Source: an uncultured SAR86 cluster bacterium (GTDB lineage Bacteria; Pseudomonadota; Gammaproteobacteria; Magnimaribacterales; AG-339-G14). Taken from it: a stretch of DNA of 64,000 nt. The notes beneath the pieces were generated by a model. It saw only the letters and a list, made by a program, of their open reading frames with translations. It ran no database searches and had not been told where the DNA came from. The stretch spans positions 92,593 through 156,592 of the forward strand of contig CACIUX010000003.1 in assembly GCA_902589965.1 (NCBI GenBank), read 5' to 3'. Positions 11,709 through 61,906 of this stretch are shown piece by piece; the first letter of the stretch is position 1; every line of letters begins with the position of its first letter. A program made the translations under genes and the position numbers.

Positions 11709-12783
11709 ACAATTAAAAGTAAGCACACCTAGTTCAAATTATTCCATTTATTTTGGTAATGATTTTATTAATAGCTTTCCCTTAAAAAAAATATCCAGTT
11801 CAAAAGAAATTTTTTTTATTTTTGACTCAAAACTTCCTGATTTATCAATCAGAAAAGTTAAGAACTTCATAAGGAAATCAAAGCCGAGTAAATTTGAATC
11901 CTTTAGATTCATGGCAAATGAAAAAAATAAATCTTTAGAGACCTCTCAAAAAATTATAGAAAAATTAATTGATTTAAAATTCTCAAGAGATTCATTGATT
12001 GTTTCTTTTGGTGGCGGCATAACTACAGATCTCGCAGGTTTTGTAGCTTCTGTATATCTTCGCGGAATTGAAGTTATGCATATTCCTACTACTCTTCTTG
12101 CCCAGGTCGATGCTTCTGTGGGGGGTAAAACAGGTGTTAACAGTAAAAAATTTAAAAATATGATTGGAGCATTCAAGCAACCTGAAGCAGTATTGATTGA
12201 TACATATTTTCTTAAATCGCTGAGCAAGAGGCATTTAGCAGCAGGTTACTCAGAAATAATTAAACATGCGTTGATTAAAGATAAATATCTTTTTTCAAAA
12301 TTAGATAACTTTGATCAGAATATTGAAAAGAAAGTAAACATTGCAGAGTTATCAAACCTTATTAAGACATCAACAAAAATTAAGGCAAATATTGTTGAGC
12401 AAGACGAAAGAGAGAAATCAGTTAGAGCTTATCTCAACTTTGGTCATACTTTCGCACATGCCATAGAAAGCGTTCAATCTTTTAATGGATTAAATCATGG
12501 CGAAGCAGTTGGCGTTGGAATGGTTTGTGCAGCTAAATTATCTCTATTGTTAGGCAAAATAAATTCACAAGAGTTTGATAAAATTAAGTCCTTAATTAAA
12601 AAATTCAACCTTCCCACAAAACTTCCTGCTAATTGTGCACCTGCAAGAATTCTTAAAGCCATGCAATCGGATAAAAAAAGTAAAGACACAACTTTAAGAT
12701 TCATTATTTTAGATGGAATAGGAAAGGCTAAAATAGTTGAAAACGTTGACAGAGAGAAAATCTTAAATAGCTTAAAAATATAA
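11695..12783 (+). CDS. aroB: 3-dehydroquinate synthase
   Basis: SFGGGITTDLAGFVASVYLRGIEVMHIPTTLLAQVDASVGGKTGVN; NFGHTFAHAIE. Confidence 0.96.
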   Translation: MKTIKQLKVSTPSSNYSIYFGNDFINSFPLKKISSSKEIFFIFDSKLPDLSIRKVKNFIRKSKPSKFESFRFMANEKNKSLETSQKIIEKLIDLKFSRDSLIVSFGGGITTDLAGFVASVYLRGIEVMHIPTTLLAQVDASVGGKTGVNSKKFKNMIGAFKQPEAVLIDTYFLKSLSKRHLAAGYSEIIKHALIKDKYLFSKLDNFDQNIEKKVNIAELSNLIKTSTKIKANIVEQDEREKSVRAYLNFGHTFAHAIESVQSFNGLNHGEAVGVGMVCAAKLSLLLGKINSQEFDKIKSLIKKFNLPTKLPANCAPARILKAMQSDKKSKDTTLRFIILDGIGKAKIVENVDREKILNSLKI

Positions 12784-12814
12784 AAAATATTTCTCTTATA
12801 ACATAGAATAAAAA

Positions 12815-12844
12815 TTGGTCTTTTTTATTATTTTTTGGTATAAA
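12815..12844 (+). promoter_or_regulatory. candidate sigma70 promoter for gltBD
   Basis: TTGGTC (12815-12820), 18-bp spacer, TATAAA (12839-12844); would give a leader of about 135 nt. Confidence 0.4.
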
Positions 12845-12863
12845 TAATTAAGTAAGAAATTGA

Positions 12864-12972
12864 CATTCTTCCCTGAGATCTTGGGCTTAAGATCAATCGT
12901 TCATCCCTATTTAGGGACGGAAGTAGGTAAAAAATCAAACCGAAGGAACGCATCTTTCTATGAGGAAGGATG
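12864..12972 (+). promoter_or_regulatory. glnA-type glutamine riboswitch candidate in the gltB leader (core about 12893-12953)
   Basis: Core ATCGTTCATCCCTATTTAGGGACGGAAGTAGGTAAAAAATCAAACCGAAGGAACGCAT matches the glnA RNA signature as I remember it (CGTTCA..CCC-loop-GGGACGGAAGTAGG..CCGAAGGAACGC). P1 is CGTTC/GAACG, P2 is CCCT/AGGG, P3 is GGT/ACC. An outer 9-bp stem pairs 12864-12872 with 12964-12972. Confidence 0.82.
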
Positions 12973-12985
12973 AAGCATTGACTCG

Positions 12986-15900
12986 ATGGTAAAAGGTATA
13001 AATAAAAAATTAATAGAGCGTCCAAAAAAGAAAGGACTTTATGATCCAGCTAGCGAGAAGGATTCTTGTGGCGTTGGCCTAGTTGCCAACATAAAGGGAA
13101 TACCTTCAAGAGAAATCATGGATGATGCCTACCTTATCAACTCTAGAATGGATCACAGAGGAGGATGTGGTTTTGAAGAAAACACAGGAGATGGAGCTGG
13201 CATTCTTCTAGCTTTGCCGCATTCTTTTTTTCAAGATCAGGCAAAAAAAATAAATATTAATCTTCCTGATTTTGGTTCTTATGCTGTAGGTAATATTTTT
13301 CTGCCACAGGATCAAAAAGAAAGATCTTTTTGTAAAAAAATTGTTGAACAAACTATTCAATCAGAAGGACAGAAATTTTTAGGTTGGAGAAAAGTTCCTA
13401 TTAATCCTAAAAAGGCAGACGTTGGACCTGCTGCTAGAGATTGTCAGCCTGAGATAGAACAAGTTTTCGTTCAAAAATCGATCAAACTTGATCAGGAAGC
13501 TTTTGAGAGAAAACTTTACCTAATTAGAAAAATTTTCACTAAACGACTTAGATACCAAGAAAATTTGAGTCAAGCCTCTTTGTTTTATGCCTGCACTCTT
13601 TCATCGAGACTGATTGCTTACAAAGGCATGCTTACCCCAGCTCAGCTTTTCCCTTTTTTCCCAGATCTTGAAAATAAAAAATTCGAAACTCATTTGGCAA
13701 TGGTTCACTCGAGATTCAGTACGAACACCTTCCCTTCTTGGGATAGAGCTCAACCCAACAGATATATGTGTCATAACGGCGAAATAAACACTTTAAAAGG
13801 AAACATGAATCAAATGTATTCTCGACAAGGTCTTGCGAGAAGTGACTATTTCGGTTCAAAAATTAATAAATTATTCCCCATAACGGAACCAGACTGCTCT
13901 GATTCAGGTTCATTCGATAATGTTCTTGAGCTGCTAATAATGTCAGGAAGAGAACTACCTGAGGCTGCCATGATGATGATTCCTGAAGCCTGGCAAAATG
14001 ATAATGAAATGAGCCCAGCAAAAAAAGCCTTTTATGAGTACTCATCATCATTTATGGAACCTTGGGATGGTCCTGCATCTATAGTTTTCACAGATGGAAA
14101 TTATGTTGGAGCCGTTTTAGATAGAAATGGACTCAGACCAAGTAGATTTTATGTAACTGATGACGACAAAGTCATCATGGCTTCAGAGGTAGGAGTTCTT
14201 CCGGTTGATCAAGCAAAGGTTTTATCAAAAGGAAGACTTCAGCCAGGAAAAATGTTTCTTATTGATTTTGAGGAAGGCAGGATGATTCCAGATGAAGAAA
14301 TCAAAAAAAGGGTCTCAAAAAAACTTCCTTATAAAGATTGGGTAAAAAATCAAATTATAGATATCCAAGATCTAAAAACATCCAAAACAAAATATAAAAC
14401 AGACGATCTAATCTCAAGGATGCAGTCTTTCGGTTACACCACTGAAACACTTGAGTTCATGTTGCTACCCCTTGTAACTGAGTTGAGAGATCCTCTTGGA
14501 TCTATGGGAAATGATGCTGCTTTAGCATGTTTATCTGATAAACCCAGAATGATTTATGACTACTTCAAGCAACTTTTTGCTCAGATTACTAATCCAGCAA
14601 TCGACTCAATAAGAGAGGAAGTAATCATGTCTCTTGAATGCCTAATAGGCCCAGAGAGTAATTTGCTCGAATCTTTAGAAGAAAATGCACATCGATTAAG
14701 ATTGAAGCATCCTATTCTTTCAAATGAAGAACTAATTAGTATAAAGAATAACAAAGATTATGGTTGGACTACTAAGACTATCGATATTACATACGAAAGA
14801 GGTAGTGGAGCCTCAGGTCTAAAGAAAGCTCTAAAAAGAATCTGCACTGAATCAGAGGACGCAATAAAGCAAGGATATTCTTTTGTACTTTTATCTGACA
14901 GAAATCTGTCAAAAAGTAGAGTTGCTACAAGTTCATTGCTTGCTTGTTCTTCCGTCCATCACCATTTAGTTAGAAAAGAAAAAAGAACACAATTAGGACT
15001 AATTATTGAGTCTGGCGAAGCCAGAGAGGTTCATCATCACTGCCTTCTTATCGGATATGGGGCTGATGCAATAAATCCCTATCTAGCTTTTGAAGTCTTG
15101 GAGAAATCTTTAAAAGATCAAATACTCCAAGATAAAAAATTGAGAAATACCTCAGATTTAGTTACTGCCTATAAAAAAGGAGTTGCTAAGGGTATGTTGA
15201 AGGTCATGGCCAAAATGGGAATATCTACACTTCAATCTTATAAAGGTGCTCAAATTTTTGAAGCGGTTGGTTTAGCTGATGAAATAATTGATTTTTGTTT
15301 TCCGGGGACTACTAGCAGAGTACAAGGAGTAGATTTTGAAGTTTTAGCTGAAGAAATAGAGAGAAGACATGCAATAGGTTTTCCTGAATACGATCAAAAT
15401 AAAGTATCTGTACTTCCTAATCCTGGAGATTTTCATTGGCGTAACGGCGGTGATTCACACATGTGGGATCCAAAATCGATTTCCTCTTTACAATTAGCCT
15501 CTCAAGCAAATGACGAGAGTAAATATTGGGAATTCTCAAATCATGCAAATGAACAGACCACCAAAAACAGTACTTTGAGAGGCCTGATGAAATTCAAATA
15601 TCCTAGAAAGGGGATTCCTTTGGATCAAGTTGAATCTGAAAAAGAAATTGTAAAAAGGTTTGCAACCGGAGCAATGTCACTAGGCTCTATTTCTACAGAA
15701 GCTCATGAATCGCTTGCATTAGCAATGAATGAACTAGGAGGTAAATCAAATACTGGTGAAGGAGGAGAGGATCCTATTAGATTTAAACCATTAAAAGATG
15801 GAAGATCTAAAAGATCAGCAATAAAACAAGTAGCCTCTGGAAGGTTTGGTGTAACTATGTGGTACCTGACTAACTCTGACGAACTTCAGATAAAGATTGC

Positions 15901-17545
15901 TCAAGGTGCAAAGCCTGGAGAAGGTGGTGAACTTCCTGGAAAAAAAGTTGATCAATATATAGCAAAGATAAGACATTCCACGCCAGGCGTTGGACTAATA
16001 AGTCCTCCTCCTCATCATGATATCTACTCTATTGAGGACATAGCTCAATTAATACACGATCTTAAGAATGCTAACAGGAAAGCTAGAATAAGTGTGAAGC
16101 TGGTCTCTGAAATTGGAGTTGGAACTATTGCAGCTGGAGTAGTAAAAGCGAAAACAGATCATCTGGTCATTGCTGGTCACGATGGAGGAACAGGAGCCTC
16201 TCCATTAACATCGATAAAGCATGCAGGCCTTCCCTGGGAGCTTGGAATTGCTGAAACACACCAAACTTTGGTGATGAATAATTTAAGATCCAGAGTGGTT
16301 CTCCAAACAGATGGCCAGTTAAAGACTGGAAGAGATGTTGCTATAGCAGCAATCTTAGGTGCCGAGGAGTTTGGTTTCTCAACAGCGCCACTGGTTACTT
16401 TGGGATGCATTATGATGAGAAAGTGTCATTTAAATACTTGCCCCGTTGGAATTGCTACTCAAGATAAAGATCTAAGAGAAAAATTTAAAGGTAAGCCAGA
16501 AAATGTTGTTAATTATCTTTTTATGGTTGCAAAAGAGCTAAGAATGATAATGGCGAAGTTAGGAATCAAAAATCTCAATGACTTGATAGGAAGAGTTGAT
16601 CTTCTCGAATTAGATAATGCTATCAATCATTGGAAAAAAGATGGCATTGATTTATCAAATCTTCTTACTCCTGCTGAAAAAGTATTTAAAAATACTGATG
16701 TATTTAAAACTCAAGATCAAAACCACAATCTAGAAAAATCACTTGACCTCAAGCTGCTTAAAAAGATTAAGCCATCAATATTAAGTAGGGAGAAAATTTT
16801 AATAAATCAGAAAATTGGGAACACAAACAGAGTCTTTGGCACCATTATATCTAACGAGATCTCTAAAATCTGGGAAAACAAAGGATTGCCTGAGGATACA
16901 ATTCACATGAAATTAAATGGGTCTGCAGGACAAAGTCTTGGAGCTTGGACTTGCAAAGGCATGACCATTGAGCTTGAAGGGGATGCGAATGACTATGTTG
17001 GTAAAGGACTTTCAGGTGGAAAAATAATCATCTATCCAGATAAGAAAAGTAAATTTGTAGCAGAGGATAATATTATTCTTGGAAATGTTGCGCTTTATGG
17101 AGCTACAGGAGGGGAAGCATATTTCAGAGGGATAGCCGCAGAGAGATTTTGCGTAAGAAACAGTGGGGCTAAGGTTGTAGTAGAAGGTATCGGAGATCAC
17201 GGATGCGAATACATGACCGGTGGTGTGGCAGTGATTCTTGGAGATACAGGCAGAAACTTCGGTGCCGGAATGAGTGGAGGAGTTGCATACGTTTATGATT
17301 CTAAAAACTCATTCAAAAGAAAATGCAACACCAGCACTTTTGAGTTAGAAAAATTAGAAAATGAGAATGATCTCAAAGAGCTTAAGCAACTAATAAAAAA
17401 TCATAAGAAATTTACTGGTTCAGCTGTAGCGACTAGAATCCTAAAAGATTGGAACAATTCAATACTAAAATTCGTAAAAGTAATGCCTACTGATTACAAA
17501 AGAGTCATGATGGAATTAAATGAAACAAAACTTAAAGTGAGTTGA
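12986..17545 (+). CDS. gltB: glutamate synthase (NADPH) large subunit
   Basis: DSCGVGLVANIKG (Ntn Cys after propeptide); GEGGEDPIRF, AKPGEGGELPGKKV; GXGXG C-terminal repeats. Confidence 0.97.
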   Translation: MVKGINKKLIERPKKKGLYDPASEKDSCGVGLVANIKGIPSREIMDDAYLINSRMDHRGGCGFEENTGDGAGILLALPHSFFQDQAKKININLPDFGSYAVGNIFLPQDQKERSFCKKIVEQTIQSEGQKFLGWRKVPINPKKADVGPAARDCQPEIEQVFVQKSIKLDQEAFERKLYLIRKIFTKRLRYQENLSQASLFYACTLSSRLIAYKGMLTPAQLFPFFPDLENKKFETHLAMVHSRFSTNTFPSWDRAQPNRYMCHNGEINTLKGNMNQMYSRQGLARSDYFGSKINKLFPITEPDCSDSGSFDNVLELLIMSGRELPEAAMMMIPEAWQNDNEMSPAKKAFYEYSSSFMEPWDGPASIVFTDGNYVGAVLDRNGLRPSRFYVTDDDKVIMASEVGVLPVDQAKVLSKGRLQPGKMFLIDFEEGRMIPDEEIKKRVSKKLPYKDWVKNQIIDIQDLKTSKTKYKTDDLISRMQSFGYTTETLEFMLLPLVTELRDPLGSMGNDAALACLSDKPRMIYDYFKQLFAQITNPAIDSIREEVIMSLECLIGPESNLLESLEENAHRLRLKHPILSNEELISIKNNKDYGWTTKTIDITYERGSGASGLKKALKRICTESEDAIKQGYSFVLLSDRNLSKSRVATSSLLACSSVHHHLVRKEKRTQLGLIIESGEAREVHHHCLLIGYGADAINPYLAFEVLEKSLKDQILQDKKLRNTSDLVTAYKKGVAKGMLKVMAKMGISTLQSYKGAQIFEAVGLADEIIDFCFPGTTSRVQGVDFEVLAEEIERRHAIGFPEYDQNKVSVLPNPGDFHWRNGGDSHMWDPKSISSLQLASQANDESKYWEFSNHANEQTTKNSTLRGLMKFKYPRKGIPLDQVESEKEIVKRFATGAMSLGSISTEAHESLALAMNELGGKSNTGEGGEDPIRFKPLKDGRSKRSAIKQVASGRFGVTMWYLTNSDELQIKIAQGAKPGEGGELPGKKVDQYIAKIRHSTPGVGLISPPPHHDIYSIEDIAQLIHDLKNANRKARISVKLVSEIGVGTIAAGVVKAKTDHLVIAGHDGGTGASPLTSIKHAGLPWELGIAETHQTLVMNNLRSRVVLQTDGQLKTGRDVAIAAILGAEEFGFSTAPLVTLGCIMMRKCHLNTCPVGIATQDKDLREKFKGKPENVVNYLFMVAKELRMIMAKLGIKNLNDLIGRVDLLELDNAINHWKKDGIDLSNLLTPAEKVFKNTDVFKTQDQNHNLEKSLDLKLLKKIKPSILSREKILINQKIGNTNRVFGTIISNEISKIWENKGLPEDTIHMKLNGSAGQSLGAWTCKGMTIELEGDANDYVGKGLSGGKIIIYPDKKSKFVAEDNIILGNVALYGATGGEAYFRGIAAERFCVRNSGAKVVVEGIGDHGCEYMTGGVAVILGDTGRNFGAGMSGGVAYVYDSKNSFKRKCNTSTFELEKLENENDLKELKQLIKNHKKFTGSAVATRILKDWNNSILKFVKVMPTDYKRVMMELNETKLKVS

Positions 17546-17546
17546 A

Positions 17547-18992
17547 ATGGGAAAAGTAACTGGCTTTAAAGAATTCTCTCGAGAAGTTGAGCCTTACAGG
17601 CCAGCAAAATCTAGGGTTTTGGACTTCAAAGAAATATACACTGATCATGACGATAAGCTCCTTAATACTCAAGCGGCTAGGTGTATGAATTGTGGTGTTC
17701 CCTTCTGTCAATCAGGTGAAGGCTGTCCTGTATACAATTTAATTCCTGAGTGGAATGATTTGGTCTACAACGAGCAGTGGGAAGATGCATTTGATAGGCT
17801 TTTCAAAACAAATAATTTTCCAGAAGTCACTGGAAGAGTCTGCCCAGCAGTCTGCGAAGGAGCATGCGTTTTAGGTATAACTGAAACTCCTGTTGCCATT
17901 AAAAATCTAGAATTTGCAATCGCTGATAAAGGAATAAAATCTGGATGGCTTAAGCCTAAGGTTCCGGAGGTCAGGACCAATAGAAAAATAGCTATAGTCG
18001 GATCAGGACCTGCTGGTCTTTCAGCAGCTCAACAACTAAATAGCGTTGGCCATTCTGTTGAAGTCTACGAAAGATCTGACCGCATTGGTGGATTAATGAT
18101 GTATGGAATTCCGAATATGAAACTCGATAAATCAATACTAGATATGAGAATTGAGATTATGGAAAAGGAAGGAATAATTTTTCACACAAATACTGATATT
18201 GGTGCTCCGAATTCACCCTCTCTTGAAAACCTTATCAACGAGAATGATTCTGTTCTTTTAACCACTGGAGCTACTAAACCCAGAGATCTAGGCATCCCTG
18301 GCAGAGAAGGAGATGGTGTTCACTTTGCTATGGAATTTCTTGGCAAAAACACTAAAAGTCTATTAGACAGCAAACTCAAAAATAATAACTTTATCTCTGC
18401 TCAGGATAAGAACGTAATCGTCATTGGTGGAGGAGATACAGGAAACGATTGTCTCGGTACATCATTAAGACACAAGTGCAAAAGTCTTCTTAATTTTGAA
18501 ATAATGCCTGAGTTGCCCAGAGATAGAGCAGATAACAATCCTTGGCCTCTTTTTCCTAGAATACACAAAGTTGATTATGGTCATGAAGAATCAATCGAGG
18601 TATTAGGAAAAGATCCCAGGGAATATTCAATCTCTGGAAAAGAATTTTTAAGAGATGAGTCTGGAAAGTTAATAGGAATCAAAACAGTAATGGTTGATTC
18701 AGCTTTTAAAGAAATAAAAGGAACTGAAAAAACTTGGAAAGCAGATCTTATTCTTCTAGCGATGGGTTTTCTTGGACCAGAAAACTATATAAATCAAGAA
18801 GTAGATATAGATCTTGATGAAAGATCTAATTTTAAGGCAGATCATAATATCCATAAAACCTCACATCCAAAAGTTTTTGCTGCCGGGGATTGTAGAAGAG
18901 GCCAATCACTTGTTGTTTGGGCAATAAATGAGGGAAGAGCCGCTGCTCGAGAAATTGATAAAGAATTAATGGGCTCTACTGCTCTTATTTAG
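17547..18992 (+). CDS. gltD: glutamate synthase small subunit
   Basis: [50 protein letters not shown]. Confidence 0.96.
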
Positions 18993-61734: not shown

Positions 61735-61906
61735 AAGTTTCCCAGATTACCGTTAACAAAACTAGACCTGAACCGTGAAGTTCAGGGCGGGAAAATCACC
61801 CGCTATCAGGCTGCCCTTAGGGCGCTCAACAAGCAAGGTATCAAGTCCCTTGATTTAATTTATCGGCTCGAGGTTTATTTTGTATATCGAATAACCCAGG
61901 AAACAA
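61735..61906 (-). ncRNA. ssrS: 6S RNA
   Basis: Minus strand GTTTCCTGGGTTATTCG...CTCGAGCCGATA...CCTGAACTTCACGGTTCAGG...GGTAATCTGGGAAAC. Has a closing stem GTTTCC/GGAAAC, the CCGATA motif shared with E. coli 6S, the zapA-ssrS-5FCL gene order, and a TATAAT at 61916-61911 (minus strand) 7 nt before the inferred start. Confidence 0.9.

What the first reader, a model, noticed from the sequence alone, without database searches (positions are those of the whole stretch)
12864..12985. Glutamine (glnA-type) riboswitch candidate controlling gltBD in a gammaproteobacterium
The 12893-12953 segment contains the glnA RNA core (CGTTCATCCCTATTTAGGGACGGAAGTAGG...CCGAAGGAACG) with P1, P2 and P3 all formable. 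From memory, glnA RNAs are best known from cyanobacteria, cyanophage and marine metagenomes; one driving glutamate synthase in this lineage would replace or supplement Ntr-type nitrogen control. Glutamine is the GltB substrate, so an ON-type response is logical. The assignment rests on motif recognition, not on a covariance-model score.
Basis: partly seen in the sequence, partly recalled or inferred. Interest (0 to 1): 0.85.

Follow-up and report, generated by a model that had tools for sequence, protein, structure and literature searches.

The report
Glutamine riboswitch controlling glutamate synthase (SAR86)
An abundant ocean bacterium (SAR86) carries a glutamine-sensing RNA switch, a type described mainly from cyanobacteria and their viruses, in front of its glutamate-synthase genes; the switch class is known, but its host and the loss of the usual protein regulator in the same bacterial genus are noteworthy.

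Summary
Window 12896-12954 (+) matches Rfam RF01739 (type-I glutamine riboswitch aptamer) end to end at 68.5 bits (cut-off 35; E 4e-13 for the whole window), 31 nt upstream of gltB-gltD. Every ligand-contact nucleotide known from the crystal structure is present. All seven same-genus genomes with an intact gltB 5' end carry it. P2 and P3 show many compensatory changes across 56 SAR86 aptamers; P1 never varies there.

The host belongs to the SAR86 order: 96 of 204 genomes of the order carry RF01739, but almost no other Pseudomonadota do. Most likely mechanism: a translational switch in which glutamine recruits C12951, which otherwise closes a hairpin hiding the Shine-Dalgarno sequence. 'ON' is inferred from tested cyanobacterial relatives; my folding does not settle the direction.

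In this genus NtrC has lost its sigma-54-interaction domain and sigma-54 is absent, while sister genera keep full NtrC and a different gltB leader.

The class and its link to glutamate synthase were already described from environmental DNA: a new member of a known kind. Two side findings outside the window are more novel: a glutamine riboswitch with a domain nested in P3, and tandem mini-pseudoknots.

The parts
12836..12845 (+). probable extended -10 promoter (TGGTATAAAT); transcription start expected near 12851
   Evidence: read from the sequence; kept in all 7 same-genus leaders; the simple sigma-70 scan did not call it, so tentative
12864..12872 (+). upstream segment CAUUCUUCC, able to pair with the Shine-Dalgarno region 12964-12972 in the predicted ligand-free fold
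   Evidence: MFE folds of the 7 same-genus leaders; prediction only
12877..12894 (+). short hairpin just 5' of the aptamer (GAUCUU/AAGAUC), function unknown
   Evidence: stem invariant in 7 leaders; no covariation available
12896..12954 (+). type-I glutamine riboswitch aptamer, RF01739 (P1 12898-12902/12946-12950; P2 12904-12908/12913-12917; P3 12926-12928/12939-12941; E-loop 12922-12925/12942-12944)
   Evidence: cmscan 68.5 bits, full length; covariation in P2 and P3
12919..12920 (+). G22 and G23 of the published structure: side-chain stacking, and the G23-C60 linchpin pair
   Evidence: position by position against the crystal sequence in PMC5393176 and contacts in PMC6698751 and PMC11477058
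12949..12951 (+). C58, G59 and C60: ligand contacts; C60 (12951) is also the first base of the SD-hiding hairpin
   Evidence: same mapping; hairpin from folding
12951..12972 (+). expression platform: 9-bp hairpin 12951-12959/12964-12972 hiding the SD-like AGGAAGG (12963-12969)
   Evidence: formed in aptamer-constrained folds of all 7 gltB leaders; same layout in 6 short-peptide leaders of other SAR86 families
12942..12958 (+). alternative helix GAAGGA/UCUUUC (12942-12947/12953-12958), mutually exclusive with P1
   Evidence: in the ligand-free MFE fold of all 7 same-genus leaders; prediction only
12986..17545 (+). gltB, large subunit of glutamate synthase (1519 aa)
   Evidence: ORF, Pfam, present in 34 of 40 family genomes
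17547..18992 (+). gltD, small subunit of glutamate synthase (481 aa)
   Evidence: ORF, Pfam Pyr_redox_2 and Fer4_20; starts 1 base after the gltB stop

Best explanation
This is a type-I glutamine riboswitch that sets translation of gltBD in a SAR86 bacterium. Without glutamine, C12951 and the following AUCUUUCU close a hairpin over the Shine-Dalgarno sequence, or the leader takes a fold without P1, and gltB is poorly translated. L-glutamine settles in the major groove of P1 and recruits G12920 (G23) to pair with C12951 (C60). That stabilises P1 and removes the closing C-G pair of the SD hairpin, which favours translation. Glutamate synthase is thus made when its substrate is plentiful. Shown here: the aptamer, its ligand-contact bases, its conserved place before gltB, and the shared use of C12951. 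Inferred: glutamine binding by this RNA, the translational level, and the ON direction.
For: RF01739 at 68.5 bits, full length. All contact bases C1, G2, G22, G23, C58, G59 and C60 present. Same place in 7/7 testable same-genus genomes. P2/P3 compensatory changes. An unrelated lineage, G504, has separate RF01739 elements before gltB and before gltD. No terminator-like site, so translation is the likelier level. Blocking C60, as the G23-C60 pair would, lowers the stability of the downstream fold by about 2.5-3.2 kcal/mol in 13 of 13 leaders. Tested type-I and type-II glutamine riboswitches activate on glutamine (PMC6316151).
Against: No binding or expression data. The predicted Shine-Dalgarno accessibility hardly changes between ligand-free and aptamer states (about 0.005-0.15 against 0.09-0.16), so folding does not establish the direction. 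The SD-like AGGAAGG lies 14-16 nt from the AUG, further than usual. P1 shows no covariation inside SAR86.
Confidence: 0.62

Rival explanations
1. Same glutamine aptamer, but an OFF switch: glutamine-stabilised P1 frees UCUUUC (12953-12958) from GAAGGA, and UCUUUC then pairs with the Shine-Dalgarno sequence and shuts gltB off.
For: The GAAGGA/UCUUUC helix and the UCUUUC/SD hairpin are mutually exclusive partners in the predicted folds of all 7 leaders. In other SAR86 families the aptamers precede glutamine synthetase and a porin-amtB operon, where repression by glutamine would make sense.
Against: Both tested glutamine riboswitch types are ON switches (PMC6316151). In the predicted ligand-free state the SD is still paired, with the upstream segment 12864-12872. 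The ligand-induced G23-C60 pair takes the closing base away from the SD hairpin.
Confidence: 0.25
2. The aptamer acts on transcription elongation or mRNA stability rather than on translation initiation.
For: The SD-like sequence is unusually far from the AUG (14-16 nt).
Against: No terminator-like site in 12700-13100. The conserved downstream hairpin contains the SD-like sequence in every leader.
Confidence: 0.1
3. A degenerate or decoy aptamer with no present function.
For: No functional data in SAR86.
Against: Loop lengths and P2/P3 sequences vary while every pairing and every ligand-contact base is kept in 7/7 genus genomes and across the order.
Confidence: 0.03

Closest known systems
Type-I glutamine riboswitch (glnA RNA, Rfam RF01739)
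   Same: Full-length match, same three-way junction, E-loop, same ligand-contact bases, conserved 3' tail GCAUC; glutamate synthase is among the 2010 gene associations (PMC2864571).
   Different: Host is a SAR86 gammaproteobacterium. [quoted passage not shown]
Synechocystis gifB glutamine riboswitch (controls IF17)
   Same: Type-I aptamer in a 5'UTR; activates on glutamine.
   Different: Controls a glutamine-synthetase inactivating factor, not glutamate synthase.
Type-II glutamine riboswitch (Downstream-peptide, RF01704)
   Same: Shares the CGUUCA...P2...CGG half and the ligand pocket.
   Different: Pseudoknot instead of a three-way junction; the window scores only 18.9 bits against a cut-off of 33.
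Phage-borne glutamine riboswitches (OM43 phage Melnitz, Pelagibacter phage Mosig)
   Same: glnA-type aptamers in viruses of streamlined marine bacteria (PMC9004378).
   Different: Melnitz's lies at its tmRNA gene and its OM43 host has none; here the aptamer is on the bacterial chromosome before gltB.

Membership tests
RF01739 type-I glutamine riboswitch | covariance-model score above the curated cut-off | tested here: met
   68.5 against 35 bits, positions 1-53 of 53
RF01739 type-I glutamine riboswitch | P1, P2 and P3 paired, with compensatory changes in relatives | tested here: met
   P2 pairs 1-4 and P3 pairs 1-3 100% paired with 2-4 pair types in 56 distinct aptamers; P1 invariant in 129 but differs by a double change from the crystal sequence (CGUUG/CAACG in PMC5393176)
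RF01739 type-I glutamine riboswitch | ligand-contact bases C1, G2, G22, G23, C58, G59, C60 | tested here: met
   12898, 12899, 12919, 12920, 12949, 12950, 12951, mapped on the published structure
RF01739 type-I glutamine riboswitch | lies in the 5' leader of a nitrogen-assimilation gene | tested here: met
   31 nt upstream of gltB
RF01739 type-I glutamine riboswitch | binds L-glutamine selectively and changes expression | not testable with these tools
   needs in-line probing or ITC and a reporter
RF01704 type-II glutamine riboswitch | covariance-model score above the curated cut-off; pseudoknot | tested here: not met
   18.9 against 33 bits, only the shared 5' hairpin aligned

The most novel reading that the evidence does not exclude
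In this SAR86 genus nitrogen control has shifted from sigma-54/NtrC transcription to RNA glutamine sensing. It would use the canonical switch on gltBD plus a second glutamine riboswitch in the glnK-amtB-DUF4278 locus (own genome, L209). The P3 of that second switch carries a conserved, covarying, roughly 70-nt nested junction that may sense a second ligand (a two-input riboswitch). No Rfam family describes the nested domain.
Probability: 0.2. Interest if true: 0.8.

Novelty: new member of a known kind. Interest (0 to 1): 0.5.

Why it matters
SAR86 is among the most abundant surface-ocean bacteria. The glutamine riboswitch has been treated as a cyanobacterial device, with its glutamine-synthetase, PII and ammonium-transporter associations left hanging on anonymous environmental DNA. 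These data place glutamate-synthase, glutamine-synthetase and porin-amtB associations in SAR86 chromosomes. They also give a testable case in which a streamlined genome gutted the NtrC/sigma-54 system while an RNA sensor sits on the key assimilation operon.

Tried and rejected
Glutamine-II/Downstream-peptide: rejected. Intrinsic terminator: none found. A leader ORF starting at ATG 12960: rejected, the ATG is absent in the other same-genus leaders. Start at AUU 12977: set aside, not in frame in the sister species. Folding to decide ON or OFF: inconclusive; the 'up antiSD' figure printed used a wrong start coordinate and is ignored in favour of the structures. First pseudoknot pattern search had one N too many and found nothing; corrected. 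tblastn of a viral DUF4278 protein in named phages: no match. gltB relatives in viral contigs: none. Laying the whole genome in the Python box was not available. Papers naming glutamine riboswitches in SAR86: none found in the held library, which lacks most subscription papers; the 2018 gifB riboswitch paper is not held, and the 2015 crystal-structure paper was read only through later papers that describe it.

Full report
Observation. The whole-window Rfam scan returns five families; one is RF01739, Glutamine riboswitch aptamer, at 12896-12954 on the + strand, 68.5 bits against a gathering score of 35, full length. A focused scan gives the same hit and shows that the sister model Glutamine-II aligns only to the shared first hairpin at 18.9 bits, below its cut-off. 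The aptamer ends 31 nt before the ATG of gltB (12986-17545), which gltD (17547-18992) follows directly.

Ligand pocket. Published structures number the bound aptamer C1 to G61. Glutamine contacts the C1-G59 pair, the G2-C58 pair and G22, and G23 inserts to pair with C60 (PMC6698751, PMC11477058, PMC5393176). In the window these are C12898, G12899, G12919, G12920, C12949, G12950 and C12951: all present. P1 in the window (CGUUC/GAACG) differs from the crystal P1 (CGUUG/CAACG) by a double, pair-keeping change.

Conservation. In the window's genus every genome with an intact gltB 5' end (7 of 7) has the element in front of gltB; the other two lack that part of the assembly. Over 56 distinct SAR86 aptamers the first four P2 pairs and first three P3 pairs are always standard and use 2-4 pair types each. 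P1 is invariant in 129 distinct aptamers even when the search does not require it, so SAR86 sequences alone neither support nor weaken P1. These counts were made on aptamers collected with the family model or with sequence patterns, which favours well-formed copies.

Host and distribution. RF01739 is found in 96 of 204 genomes of the order and 13 of 22 genera, 82 genomes above the cut-off, often in tandem. In an even sample of the class only 4 of 387 genomes have it: three from this order and one other, G504. In an even sample of the phylum only the window's own genome does (1 of 399). G504, a 1.1-Mb non-SAR86 genome, has one aptamer before gltB and another before the separately located gltD, independent support for the link with glutamate synthase. 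In other SAR86 families the aptamers precede glutamine synthetases (type II-like and type I), short basic peptides, a porin next to amtB, TonB-dependent receptors and another ORF; apart from the DUF4278 and short-peptide cases these downstream genes were named from their sequence by eye, not by a family search.

Expression platform. Directly after P1 the bases C12951-U12959 pair with 12964-12972 over the SD-like AGGAAGG. The same layout (GCAUCUUU...AGGAGAUG) occurs in six short-peptide leaders of other families. Withholding C60 from this hairpin, as the ligand-induced G23-C60 pair would, costs about 2.5-3.2 kcal/mol in all 13 leaders. That is a direct physical link between ligand binding and the ribosome-binding site, and it favours an ON switch like the tested cyanobacterial ones (PMC6316151). 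But folding of the full leader predicts a competing ligand-free state (12864-12872 with the SD; 12942-12947 with 12953-12958) and an SD that stays mostly paired in both states. The direction is therefore an inference. No terminator-like site exists.

Ntr context. The genome keeps two PII genes, a type-II-like glutamine synthetase, and ntrB-ntrC next to it. In the window's genus NtrC is a 256-aa receiver plus Fis-type HTH, with the whole sigma-54-interaction AAA+ domain missing in frame (7 genomes match only the two ends of the profile; three were read in full). 29 genomes of the three sister genera score above the NtrC cut-off at full length, about 465 aa. No complete sigma-54 exists in the family; only ~80-aa RpoN-box fragments remain in two sister genera, in the examined case next to a probable lptB. 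The sister genus g4 has GAFKGA instead of GAFTGA in the one NtrC read. So decay of sigma-54-dependent Ntr control and the riboswitch on gltB go together, but this is one genus against three, an association and not a demonstration, and I did not establish the order of events.

Sister genera. Their gltB leaders lack the aptamer. Instead they hold one to three 24-nt H-type pseudoknot units in which a 4-nt loop pairs with 4 nt after an A-run; UCAC/GUGA, GUCC/GGAC, CUCC/GGAG and UAAC/GUUA all occur across the order. Units occur at 44 per Mb in fetched loci against 9 per Mb in a Markov control (loci were partly chosen for this), the core pattern is present in 25 genomes of those genera and absent from the window's genus, and there is no Rfam match at E<0.5. 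In other families the units sit next to glutamine aptamers at glutamine synthetase and porin-amtB leaders.

Second riboswitch of the same genome. At G000:C11 (L209/L090), downstream of glnK-amtB, a variant aptamer precedes a 53-aa DUF4278-like protein (24.0 bits, just under the cut-off of 25.3; relatives exceed it). Its P3 carries a conserved domain (GAAAACC-UC[P4]GG-YNAGCAAGUACC[P5]GGGAACGAGACCGAA) with covarying P3 and P4. Complete elements of this kind score 40-43 bits. A pattern for the domain finds 37 genome stretches, nearly all SAR86, and 20 viral contigs, of which those examined carry phage head and packaging genes of a T4-like kind. In cyanobacteria glutamine riboswitches also mostly precede DUF4278 genes (PMC6316151).

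Comparison with the known. Weinberg et al. 2010 listed glutamate synthase and tandem copies among glnA RNAs from 'Cyanobacteria, marine' (PMC2864571). The element in the window is thus a new member of a known kind. New to the papers I could read are the assignment to SAR86, the coincidence with a gutted NtrC, and the two side motifs.

Noticed in passing
own genome L209 (G000:C11), element L090 minus strand, about G000:C11:26055-26190; relatives L037-L057, L091-L095; viral L147-L166: A second glutamine riboswitch, with a ~70-nt conserved and covarying junction domain nested in P3, precedes a DUF4278-like protein downstream of glnK-amtB; present in the examined genera of the family and in marine phage contigs; the nested domain has no Rfam family.
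   Followed up: partly
gltB leaders of sister genera L067-L089; also L002, L012, L016, L017, L018, L020, L028, L103, L210: Tandem 24-nt H-type pseudoknot units with compensatory loop/tail changes upstream of gltB, glutamine synthetase and porin-amtB; no Rfam match; candidate new nitrogen-related RNA motif.
   Followed up: partly
L202:3388-4158(-) own genome; L204, L208; compare L205, L206, L207: NtrC reduced to a receiver plus Fis HTH (256 aa) by in-frame loss of the AAA+ domain in the genus; sister genus g4 has GAFKGA instead of GAFTGA in the genome read.
   Followed up: yes
L215:1856-2092(+), G006: sigma-54 survives only as a ~78-aa RpoN-box (DNA-binding) ORF after a probable lptB in sister genera.
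   Followed up: partly
L098-L100, L104, L105, L107-L109: In other SAR86 families tandem glutamine aptamers precede 45-57-aa basic peptides with no Pfam family at the gathering cut-off; possible analogues of cyanobacterial glutamine-synthetase inactivating factors (speculative).
   Followed up: no
L003-L005, L009, L014, L018, L029, L096, L097, L101, L102: A conserved GUUAAAC...GAGUUUAAC...CCUGCAGA...UGCA segment follows the last aptamer in the glutamine synthetase, TonB-receptor and porin leaders; probably their expression platform.
   Followed up: no
window 61735-61905 (-): 6S RNA, 51.7 bits, just above its cut-off.
   Followed up: no
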